Positions 35,631 to 37,366 of a stretch of 64,000 nt of DNA are shown piece after piece; position 1 is the stretch's first letter; each line of letters opens with the position of its first letter. Where the stretch lies: NCBI RefSeq assembly GCF_000381005.1, contig NZ_KB908379.1, positions 1-64,000 on the forward strand, written 5' to 3'. Both the position numbers and the translations under genes were made by a program. The notes beneath the pieces are model-generated. The model worked only from the letters and a program-made list of their open reading frames with translations, ran no database searches and had not been told where the DNA came from. Origin of the DNA: Selenomonas bovis DSM 23594 (GTDB lineage: Bacteria > Bacillota > Negativicutes > Selenomonadales > Selenomonadaceae).

Positions 35631-35833
35631 CATTGTGCGCCTGCCCTTGAAGTAAATCCAGCCAATCGCGCTGCGCCTGCGGCCTGCACTCTTAGGGATT
35701 TCCATAGTAAACTCAACGCACAAACGTCCACTTCGTGGACATTGTGCGCCCGCCCTTGCAGTAAATCCAGCCAATCGCGCTGCGCCTGCGGCTTGCGCTC
35801 TTGGGGATTTACATAGTAAACTACATGCCTTAA
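35631..35833. repeat. Tandem 109-base intergenic repeat, two copies
   Basis: Unit 1 (35631-35739) and unit 2 (from 35740, about 94 bases) share CATTGTGCGC, AGTAAATCCAGCCAATCGCG, a GC-rich run and a final CATAGTAAACT, with few differences. The junction GTCCACTTCGTGGAC forms a small hairpin. A single related copy is at 2178-2230. The repeat covers much of the gap between xseA and the IS110 element and may have separated xseA from its original promoter. Confidence 0.85.
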
Positions 35834-35936
35834 CGGCACCATCATGAACGAAACCACCTCCAACTGTGGTAGAATATAGTTAGACGTTGCAAGGTCGATT
35901 CTTTTTTGGGTCTCGAACTCGCATAGTAAACTGATC

Positions 35937-36005
35937 TGGCCCCTTTTTGCACCACATTTTGTTCCTTCGAGGACGTATAGTAAAATAAGCGAATCATAGG
36001 GGCCA
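35937..36005 (+). ncRNA. Candidate IS110 bridge (guide) RNA structured region
   Basis: TGGCCCC (35937-35943) and GGGGCCA (35999-36005) can pair and enclose a 55-base loop with an inner CCT-TCG-AGG hairpin. The stretch lies in the non-coding 5' region of the IS110 element, where the bridge RNA of IS110-group elements is encoded. Location and fold fit; the target- and donor-binding loops were not matched to flanking DNA. Confidence 0.35.
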
Positions 36006-36030
36006 CATCGTACATTTGGAGGTGGACTTC

Positions 36031-37266
36031 ATGAAAGCGTTGTACGAACGTTGCTGTGGGATTGATGTGCACAAACGAATCGTGGTTGCCTGCTTGAAAT
36101 GTGGCAAGAAGCAGGAAATCCGTGAGTTTGGCACTACGACAGAGGAACTTCGTTCCCTCACTGAATGGCTCTCGGACAGCAAATGCCAGATGATTGCCAT
36201 GGAAAGCACGGGATCTTACTGGAAGCCTCTCTATAACATTTTCGAGCTTTCCTCCTTGGCGGCCATTGTTGTCAATGCCCGCGACATGAGGAACGTTCCT
36301 GGTCGCAAAACGGATATCAAGGATGCCGAATGGATTGCTGATCTCTTGCAGCATGGCCTTCTCCGCGCCAGCTATATCCCAAACAGGGAACAGCGCGAGC
36401 TTCGCGAATTATCCCGTTATAGGAAAAGTCTCATCGAAGAACGTGCCCGTGAGCTGAACCGTCTCCAGAAGATGCTGGAAGGCGGCAACATCAAACTGGC
36501 CAGCGTAGTGTCTGACATCAACGGCAGAAGCGCTCGGAACCTGCTGACACACATGCTCAAGCGCGATACATCCTTAACCAAGGAAGAAGTTTCTTCCTTG
36601 GTACGTGGCCGTTTGCGTCACAAGGTAGAGTCCATCATGAAGGCGCTGGATGGATTCCTCACACCGCTGCAAAAGCAGCTGATGCTCAAGGTTGTCGATC
36701 ACATTGATGACATGACCAAGCGAATAGGGGAAATGGATGACCTGATGAATCAATACCTTACGGAATATCATGAGGCAATCCAGAAACTGGATGAAATCCC
36801 CGGCATCGGTCGCCAGAGCGCCGAGACCATCTTGGCGGAGACAGGGCTTGACATGAACCGTTTTCCTACAGCGAAACATTTCTCCAGCTGGGCGGGCCTG
36901 GCTCCTGGCAGCAATGAAAGTGCAGGGAAGCGACGGTATGGAAGAACAACAAAAGGGAACATCACCTTGAAAACCACCTTGATTCAATGTGCGAAAGCCG
37001 CTGTCAAGAAAACAGATTCCTTCCTTTCCGCACAATATCAGCGACTTGTTGTTCGGCGGGGGGCAAACCGTGCCACGGTCGCTGTTGCCCACACGATGCT
37101 CATATCGATTTATCATATGCTCAAGAACAATGTTCCGTTTACTGATCTTGGTGCAGACTATTACAACCAATTCAACACCCAAAGCAAGATCCAGCATTAT
37201 TTGAAAAAACTCAAACGACTTGGCTGGGAGTTGGATTCCGCCACAATTCCGACCGCAGCCGTATAG
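36031..37266 (+). CDS. IS110-family transposase (DEDD recombinase)
   Basis: This 411-residue recombinase acts with a guide RNA to recombine donor and target DNA. The N-terminal RuvC-like DEDD domain shows Asp in CGIDVHK, Glu in MESTGSYWKP and Asp residues in TDIKDAEWIADLL. The C-terminal domain has LDEIPGIGRQSAETILAE followed by FSSWAGLAPGSNESAGKRRYG, with the Ser used by this family. ATG 36031 has GGAGG nine bases upstream. The frame is intact, so the element may be active. Confidence 0.93.
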   Translation: MKALYERCCGIDVHKRIVVACLKCGKKQEIREFGTTTEELRSLTEWLSDSKCQMIAMESTGSYWKPLYNIFELSSLAAIVVNARDMRNVPGRKTDIKDAEWIADLLQHGLLRASYIPNREQRELRELSRYRKSLIEERARELNRLQKMLEGGNIKLASVVSDINGRSARNLLTHMLKRDTSLTKEEVSSLVRGRLRHKVESIMKALDGFLTPLQKQLMLKVVDHIDDMTKRIGEMDDLMNQYLTEYHEAIQKLDEIPGIGRQSAETILAETGLDMNRFPTAKHFSSWAGLAPGSNESAGKRRYGRTTKGNITLKTTLIQCAKAAVKKTDSFLSAQYQRLVVRRGANRATVAVAHTMLISIYHMLKNNVPFTDLGADYYNQFNTQSKIQHYLKKLKRLGWELDSATIPTAAV

Positions 37267-37335
37267 CGAAAAAAGCTCTATTTCCAGCTATAGGGACTTT
37301 TTGCGCTCTTTTAAGGACTACGTACTATGGTTTCA

Positions 37336-37366
37336 TAATAAAAGGCCAGACACAAGGTTCTGGCCT
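37336..37366 (-). terminator. Terminator after nusB
   Basis: AGGCCAGA and TCTGGCCT pair across an eight-base loop. On the minus strand TTTTATTATG follows. Confidence 0.85.

What the first reader, a model, noticed from the sequence alone, without database searches (positions are those of the whole stretch)
35840..36030. Possible bridge RNA of a new IS110 element
The about 190-base non-coding stretch before the transposase is the position where IS110-group elements encode their guide RNA. It contains a TGGCCCC/GGGGCCA stem with an inner hairpin. Each such RNA specifies its own target and donor, so a new sequence would be a new programmable recombinase specificity.
Basis: partly seen in the sequence, partly recalled or inferred. 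Interest (0 to 1): 0.5.

Follow-up and report, generated by a model that had tools for sequence, protein, structure and literature searches.

The report
Bridge RNA with flipped guides
The stretch very probably encodes a guide ("bridge") RNA that tells a jumping gene where to insert, here a short repeat found dozens of times in this genome, but its two target-reading arms lie in the opposite order from the best-studied example, IS621, which is a testable twist on a known RNA-guided recombination system.

Summary
A covariance model built from 27 relatives, window excluded, finds one bridge-RNA-like structure in the window, at 35881-36012(+) (79.9 bits, E 5.5e-19). Its helices covary strongly. 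The element runs from 35818 to 37339 (1522 bp, core AA) and encodes a 411-aa DEDD/serine recombinase. The first loop carries CATAGTAA, identical to left target plus core; the second carries TATAGTAA, resembling the element's right end. Over relatives the target-guide match is far above shuffles (173/210 positions; best of 20,000 shuffles 106) and repeats on loci fetched later (56/72; best shuffle 44). The target is the end of a repeat with 69 similar sites in this genome. The unexpected part is guide order. In IS621 the 5' arm of each loop reads the left side and the 3' arm the right. Here, and in relatives from Selenomonas to Streptomyces, the target loop is reversed, and so is the readable arm of the donor loop, although the RNA still lies upstream of the recombinase gene. 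This is a new IS110-family member with, as far as I could read, an undescribed guide arrangement. Expression and activity were not tested.

The parts
35631..35817 (+). host target: two tandem units of a 109-bp repeat; the second is interrupted by the insertion
   Evidence: two 109-nt copies, 83% alike; 44 matches in the genome, own place included, to the query that contains it
35811..35817 (+). left target (LT) ACATAGT
35818..37339 (+). IS110-type element, 1522 bp, one copy of core AA included
   Evidence: ends by homology with multi-copy relatives, joined flanks and an IS-free congeneric locus
35818..35819 (+). left core dinucleotide AA
35867..35875 (+). possible extended -10 promoter TGGTAGAAT for the RNA (no good -35)
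   Evidence: read by eye; the sigma-70 scan found none; TGGTACAAT / TGTTACAAT at the same place in L120 / L082
35881..36012 (+). predicted bridge RNA
   Evidence: covariance model built without the window, 79.9 bits, E 5.5e-19
35892..35937 (+). target-binding loop: outer stem AGGUC/GAUCU, apical hairpin GGGU..ACUC (35908-35920)
35900..35905 (+). right target guide (5' arm), UCUUUU, pairs with AA|AAGG of the right target (5 pairs + 1 wobble)
   Evidence: sequence; RTG-RT shuffles 0 of 5000 at this offset over the set
35922..35929 (+). left target guide (3' arm), CAUAGUAA, 8/8 with left target + core; the following ACU also equals the left end
35938..36004 (+). donor-binding loop, outer stem GGCCCC/GGGGCC, inner stem about 35960-35965 / 35971-35975
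35976..35983 (+). left donor guide (3' arm), UAUAGUAA, against right end CATAATAA (6/8 + 1 G-T wobble)
   Evidence: LDG-LD shuffles
36018..36025 (+). ribosome-binding site GGAGGTGG
   Evidence: read by eye; position
36031..37266 (+). recombinase, 411 aa; D12, E58, D95, D98, S297 align with the IS621 DEDD and serine residues
37334..37341 (+). right end / left donor CATAAT with core AA (37340-37341)
37342..37347 (+). right target AAGGCC

Best explanation
35881-36012 encodes the bridge RNA of a complete IS110-type element (35818-37339). The recombinase (36031-37266) would bind the RNA. The first loop pairs with the genomic target: its 3' arm with the bottom strand of ACATAGT|AA and its 5' arm with the top strand of AA|AAGG. 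The second loop pairs with the joined ends of the excised circle: its 3' arm with the right end CATAAT|AA. The recombinase then exchanges strands at the AA core and inserts the element in one orientation into the end of a dispersed repeat. Shown by sequence: the RNA structure, the ends, and guide-target and guide-donor covariation. Inferred: transcription, binding, circular intermediate, strand exchange, current activity. Compared with IS621 the guide arms are in reversed order (right guide 5', left guide 3'); this too is shown by sequence comparison only, and for the donor loop only on the left-donor side.
For: Recombinase family: Pfam DEDD_Tnp_IS110 4.6e-32 and Transposase_20 1.5e-22, NCBIfam IS110 RNA-guided transposase 280 bits against a cut-off of 140. 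Held-out model hit; covarying helices. Left target guide against left target: 173/210 positions over 35 sites, best of 20,000 shuffles 106; loci fetched later 56/72 over 12 sites, best shuffle 44; one site per element 42/54, best 39. Right target guide against right target at a fixed offset: 65/120 against 42.9 +/- 4.2, 0 of 5000. Left donor guide against right end: 100/105, best shuffle 82. Order: the IS621-like assignment (5' arm as left guide) gives z = 1.25 at best, the reversed one z = 14.0. Two IS621-type elements read the canonical way. Natural reprogramming: L120, 87% identical DNA, has guide GTGTTCTAA and left flank TGATTCTAA where the window has GCATAGTAA and ACATAGTAA.
Against: No RNA or activity data. 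The right donor guide was not identified. The single-sequence minimum-free-energy fold does not reproduce the outer stem of the target loop. The model alignment of the window marks non-standard pairs in the closing helix and in the outer stem of the donor loop. The right target match is short and A/T-rich, significant only over the set. The left donor guide has one mismatch and one wobble in the window. Only one copy in this genome, so mobility is not shown. Rows, guide strings and ends were chosen by hand, also for the loci fetched later; some rows are copies of one element. One later element (L207) matches at only 2/6, and in one Streptomyces relative (L139) no guide match was found. The promoter scan found nothing.
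Confidence: 0.88

Rival explanations
1. It is a bridge RNA with the same guide order as IS621 (left guide on the 5' arm); the match on the 3' arm is incidental.
For: IS621 and ISEc21, the two IS110-group members whose order I could read in print, have that order. The 3' arm as complement of the right target reached z = 2.3 (98 of 3000 shuffles as high) at one offset in which few positions were compared.
Against: The 3' arm reads the left target with z = 14.0; the 5' arm as left guide gives z = 1.25; the 3'-arm signal repeats in later-fetched loci; the 8/8 match in the window is on the 3' arm.
Confidence: 0.04
2. The structure is a leader that regulates recombinase expression, not a guide.
For: It lies directly upstream of the start codon and could be part of the messenger; a 14-nt inverted repeat pairs 35854-35867 with the ribosome-binding site; ISPpu9 has regulatory small RNAs and leader structure (title and abstract in the listing).
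Against: A leader does not explain why its most variable positions follow the host flank of each insertion. Both roles could coexist.
Confidence: 0.04
3. A decayed element whose RNA no longer works; similarity to the flank is left over from the original insertion.
For: Single copy although 69 target-like sites exist; left donor guide imperfect; non-standard pairs in two helices.
Against: Open 411-aa frame with the catalytic residues kept; 8/8 left target guide; the model is matched over its full length; L120 in another genus is 90% identical in protein.
Confidence: 0.1

Closest known systems
IS621 bridge RNA / recombinase (IS110 family, E. coli)
   Same: RNA upstream of the recombinase gene; two internal loops, target first and donor second; guides overlap at a core dinucleotide; DEDD plus serine recombinase; insertion into a dispersed repeat (REP; PMC1525189, passages).
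   Different: Here the left guide is the 3' arm and the right target guide the 5' arm; core AA not CT; recombinase 411 aa not 326; the bases that echo the donor follow the left guide, not the right one; 25% protein identity (93/376).
IS1111-group seekRNA (ISEc11, ISPa11, ISKpn4)
   Same: Guide order: the complement of the top strand precedes the complement of the bottom strand (PMC11187229, passages).
   Different: In IS1111 the RNA lies usually downstream of the gene and the ends have subterminal inverted repeats; here the RNA is upstream and no such repeat was found.
REP-targeting IS110-family elements (IS621, ISPpu9, ISPpu10, ISPa11)
   Same: Target is a repeat spread through the host genome (PMC1525189, passages).
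   Different: The repeat here is a 109-bp tandem unit; I made no literature search for a description of it.

Membership tests
IS110 family (DEDD recombinase elements) | DEDD RuvC-like domain plus Transposase_20 domain with catalytic serine | tested here: met
IS110 family (DEDD recombinase elements) | defined ends that share only a short core | tested here: met
   AA at both ends, ends by homology with nine copies with both flanks in Lachnospiraceae 28-4; the IS-free congeneric locus is not an exact empty site
IS110 family (DEDD recombinase elements) | circular intermediate | not testable with these tools
   needs PCR or reads across the joined ends
IS110 group (as against IS1111) | long non-coding end upstream of the gene | tested here: met
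   213 bp before the ATG, 73 bp after the stop
IS110 group (as against IS1111) | bottom-strand guide 5' of top-strand guide (as in IS621 and ISEc21) | tested here: not met
   controls
IS1111 group | long subterminal inverted repeats | tested here: not met
   the repeat search lists two inverted pairs, neither near the right end
Bridge RNA | two stem-loops with internal loops, conserved structure | tested here: met
Bridge RNA | target loop pairs with both target strands | tested here: met
   in the window the right-target side is short
Bridge RNA | donor loop pairs with both donor strands | tested here: inconclusive
   left donor guide supported; right donor guide not identified
Bridge RNA | transcribed and bound by the recombinase; reprogrammable | not testable with these tools
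   needs experiment

The most novel reading that the evidence does not exclude
The roughly 400-aa recombinases of the IS110 group form an undescribed class of bridge recombinases whose RNA is read in mirror image: the 5' arms take the right side and the 3' arms the left, the bases after the left guide pair with the incoming donor strand (a mirrored handshake), and strand exchange therefore starts on the opposite strand from IS621.
Probability: 0.35. Interest if true: 0.7.

Novelty: new variant of a known kind. Interest (0 to 1): 0.5.

Why it matters
Bridge recombinases are being developed for programmable DNA insertion, and the published design rules I could read come from IS621. If a large, widely spread part of the IS110 group uses the opposite guide order, guides designed by the IS621 rules would fail for it, and its targets would be mis-assigned. 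It also makes an evolutionary question testable: whether the guide arms swapped when the RNA moved between ends, or before. The window element and L120 are a natural reprogramming pair for a first test.

Tried and rejected
Rfam at gathering thresholds found nothing in the window. IS621-like guide order was tested and not supported. Right donor guide: I looked by eye for complementarity between the 5' arm of the donor loop and the left end in about a dozen elements and found no consistent pairing. A handshake on the right-guide side (the two bases before the apical stem against the right end) was looked at by eye: it fits Paenibacillus but not the AA-core elements; no test was run. An apparent tandem pair of bridge RNAs in G164 is joined at an N and looks like an assembly joint. 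mis-extracted three rows (L039, L051, L076), because the guide string also occurs in the donor loop; corrected. One further IS621-side protein, L214, gave no clear guide match in either order and was not counted as a control. Literature: of PMC11208160 I saw the outline, sections 6, 7 and 12 and passages; of PMC11208158, PMC11187229, PMC12045711 and PMC1525189 passages only; the other papers only as listings. Figures (including the one with ISPpu10, ISAar29, ISHne5) are not held, so reversed order may be drawn there without being mentioned in what I read. Rows dropped: one search used 38 hand-picked rows out of the loci then held; one had a usable left flank (L049, L036, L063 dropped) and 30 a usable right flank (L069, L104, L061, L050, L063, L056, L090, L081 dropped). 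Some rows are copies of one element (L071/L074/L080, L057/L060, L127/L128). Of the copies in Lachnospiraceae 28-4 one (L041) was used. Loci without clear ends, or with truncated flanks, were left out. One search used 21 hand-picked elements; one search used 38. In one search, 12 sites of 9 elements were used; L179, L188, L189 (assembly joint or duplicate) and L211, L212, L213 (no left end or degenerate) were left out, as was the degenerate hit L122.

Full report
What is there. The stretch 35840-36030 lies between a host repeat and an IS110 recombinase gene. The protein (411 aa from ATG 36031) matches Pfam DEDD_Tnp_IS110 and Transposase_20 and the NCBIfam model 'IS110 family RNA-guided transposase' at 280 bits, cut-off 140. 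The two solved structures matched are IS621 and ISCro4; identity to IS621 is 25%. In that alignment D12, E58, D95, D98 and S297 correspond to the DEDD and serine residues (positions; IS621 D102 and S241 are named, the other two aspartates and the glutamate of IS621 are recalled).

Ends. The nine copies with both flanks in Lachnospiraceae 28-4 (L041-L043, L045-L048, L079, L103) share sequence from CTAAACC at the left to CATAGTAA at the right and differ beyond. By homology the window element starts at TAGT|AA|ACTACATG and ends at CATAAT|AA|AAGG, core AA at 35818-35819 and 37340-37341, 1522 bp. Joining the flanks in a script gives ...GGGGATTTACATAGTAAAAGGCCAGAC..., which resembles how other arrays of this repeat end in the same genome. 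A congeneric genome (G001, L141) has the orthologous nusB-xseA locus without the element. It carries a shorter remnant of the same repeat next to AGGCCAGACACAAGG (I read it in reverse complement). It is not an exact empty site. The genus is probably Selenomonas: G002, called same genus, holds the same contig (53,685 bases) as a record titled Selenomonas sp..

Target. The left flank is the last of two 109-bp tandem units. The query containing them had 44 matches in the genome, its own place included. GGATTTACATAGTAAA occurs 69 times with up to two mismatches, 16 exactly, against 0 for the reversed control pattern. The element is present once.

RNA structure. Twenty-seven relatives' upstream regions, window not included, were aligned. 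RNAalifold gave 28 pairs, 13 with compensatory changes. A covariance model from it finds one match in the window, 35881-36012(+), 79.9 bits, E 5.5e-19 (E-values are rough). On 41 matches from 40 sources, 95.0% of cells pair, 18 of 28 pairs have changes on both sides and the covariation score is 0.417 against 0.193 in shuffles, 0 of 500 reaching it; sliding the partners by 1-3 columns gives 33-41% paired. That alignment is fitted to the model, and one of its rows is the duplicate hit in L185 at the assembly joint. The structure is a closing stem, a first hairpin with an internal loop, and a second hairpin with an internal loop. Between the window and L120 this stem changes on both sides (GGCCCC/GGGGCC to GGCCTC/GAGGCC; read). 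The single-sequence fold is only moderately better than shuffles (z -2.4) and pairs the first hairpin differently, and the model alignment marks non-standard pairs in the closing helix and the outer donor-loop stem of the window.

Guides. In the first loop the 3' arm CATAGTAA (35922-35929) equals the left target plus core (8/8), and the match runs on for ACT into the left end; CATAGTAAACT occurs in the window only at the two repeat units and in the RNA. The 5' arm UCUUUU (35900-35905) can pair with AA|AAGG. Over 35 hand-extracted sites the 3' arm matches its own left flank at 173 of 210 positions; the best of 20,000 shuffles was 106. Over 30 sites the 5' arm, read at a fixed offset of two bases from the apical stem, matches its own right flank at 65 of 120 positions, shuffles 42.9 +/- 4.2, 0 of 5000. 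Offset 1 was weaker (19 of 5000), and offsets 0 and 3 were not clearly above chance (572 and 2363 of 5000) (four positions per site). On 12 sites of 9 elements fetched afterwards the 3'-arm match was 56 of 72, best shuffle 44; with one site per element 42 of 54, best 39; one of them, L207, matched at 2 of 6. Host flanks are not inherited with the element, so shared ancestry does not explain this. The second loop's 3' arm matches the right end at 100 of 105 positions over 21 hand-picked elements, best shuffle 82; here both sides belong to the element, so ancestry can contribute.

Natural reprogramming. L120 (genome G032, same family, another genus) is 87% identical in DNA over 1530 bases and 90% in protein. 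Its guide is GTGTTCTAA and its flank TGATTCTAA, where the window has GCATAGTAA and ACATAGTAA. In G040, two of eight copies carry CCACA in guide and target and the other six CCCCA in both.

Guide order. [quoted passage not shown] I checked this on IS621 itself: ATCGGGCCT then GCGTAG (L130, L132, by eye). I checked it also on an Enterobacter relative: TACCCGGCCTT at offset 44, its right guide at offset 72 (L131). In the window clade the assignment is the opposite: 3' arm as left guide z = 14.0; 5' arm as left guide at best z = 1.25; 5' arm as complement of the right target z = 4.1; 3' arm in that role z = 2.3, at an offset where few positions were compared. The longest left-flank match also lies 3' of the apical hairpin in Caballeronia (L133), Streptomyces (L137) and Alicyclobacillus (L138), single 8-9-base matches, but not in L139, where only a 7-base match elsewhere was found. 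In a tree of 18 recombinases the 15 of about 400 aa (13 read as reversed, two not read) are separated from the three IS621-side proteins (two read as canonical, one not read) by a 100/100 branch. Siddiquee et al. (PMC11187229, passages) report that IS1111 and IS110 elements have opposite order, using one IS110 member (ISEc21), and suggest further families in the IS110 group. The window clade has the IS1111 order with the IS110 position. My searches did not turn up a description of this, but they cover open-licence papers only and figures are not held.

Handshake. The two bases after the left guide's core equal the first two bases of the element's own left end in 35 of 38 elements; shuffles reach at most 31. 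Leaving out the commonest dinucleotide, 7 of 10 are exact, 157 of 20,000 shuffles as high, which is weaker. The earlier run (three rows mis-extracted) found no such relation to the right target. Both sides belong to the element, so ancestry can contribute. In IS621 comparable bases follow the right guide and help strand exchange. By inference, this clade runs the same RNA logic in mirror image.

Spread. Matches to the model (E up to 0.001) were found in 5 of 60 relatives, 10 of 380 genomes of the class and 8 of 299 genomes of the family of Lachnospiraceae 28-4, own or centre genomes included.

What is inferred. Transcription, binding, circularisation, recombination and present activity. An extended -10 (TGGTAGAAT, 35867-35875) sits where a start near 35882 would be expected, but the promoter scan found no site. 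The right donor guide was not identified.

Verdict. Interest comes from the order, not from the presence of the RNA.

Noticed in passing
35631-35817; L002-L030: A 109-bp repeat, often in tandem, lies at dozens of sites in this genome; arrays end at TTTACATAGTAAA or close variants, in several places next to a terminator-like hairpin. It carries inner inverted repeats (GTAAATCC..GGATTTAC). Not identified.
   Followed up: partly
35854-35867 with 36012-36025: A 14-nt inverted repeat (93% complementary) pairs the region just before the putative RNA start with the ribosome-binding site; L120 has a similar pair (CCTCCAGT / ACTGGAGG). It could keep read-through transcripts from outside from being translated, which would limit transposase expression.
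   Followed up: partly
35835-35854 and 35949-35956; similar in many relatives: A motif GGCACCATCATGAACGAAAC near the left end (GGCACCACCATAAATGAAAC in relatives) resembles GCACCACA in the 5' arm of the donor loop. Unexplained.
   Followed up: no
L039, L051: The left target guide (GCAGAGTAA) is identical to the left donor guide, so target and donor look alike in these elements.
   Followed up: no
L118, L123 against L124-L129 (G040): Two of eight copies differ by one base in the guide, and their targets differ by the same base; the target there also looks like a repeated, palindrome-like sequence.
   Followed up: partly
L070, L072 (Paenibacillus sp. P25): The right end is followed directly by another left end: tandem copies that show the joined-end (donor) sequence in place.
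   Followed up: no
L082 / L111+L114 (Selenomonas SUG490): The congeneric element has its recombinase frame split in two (matches in two frames).
   Followed up: no
L113, L116 (G004): A second, distant IS110-type recombinase (about 440 aa, 27% identical) occurs in the same genus; its RNA was not examined.
   Followed up: no
L179, L185 (G164): Apparent tandem bridge RNAs joined at an N, probably an assembly joint.
   Followed up: yes
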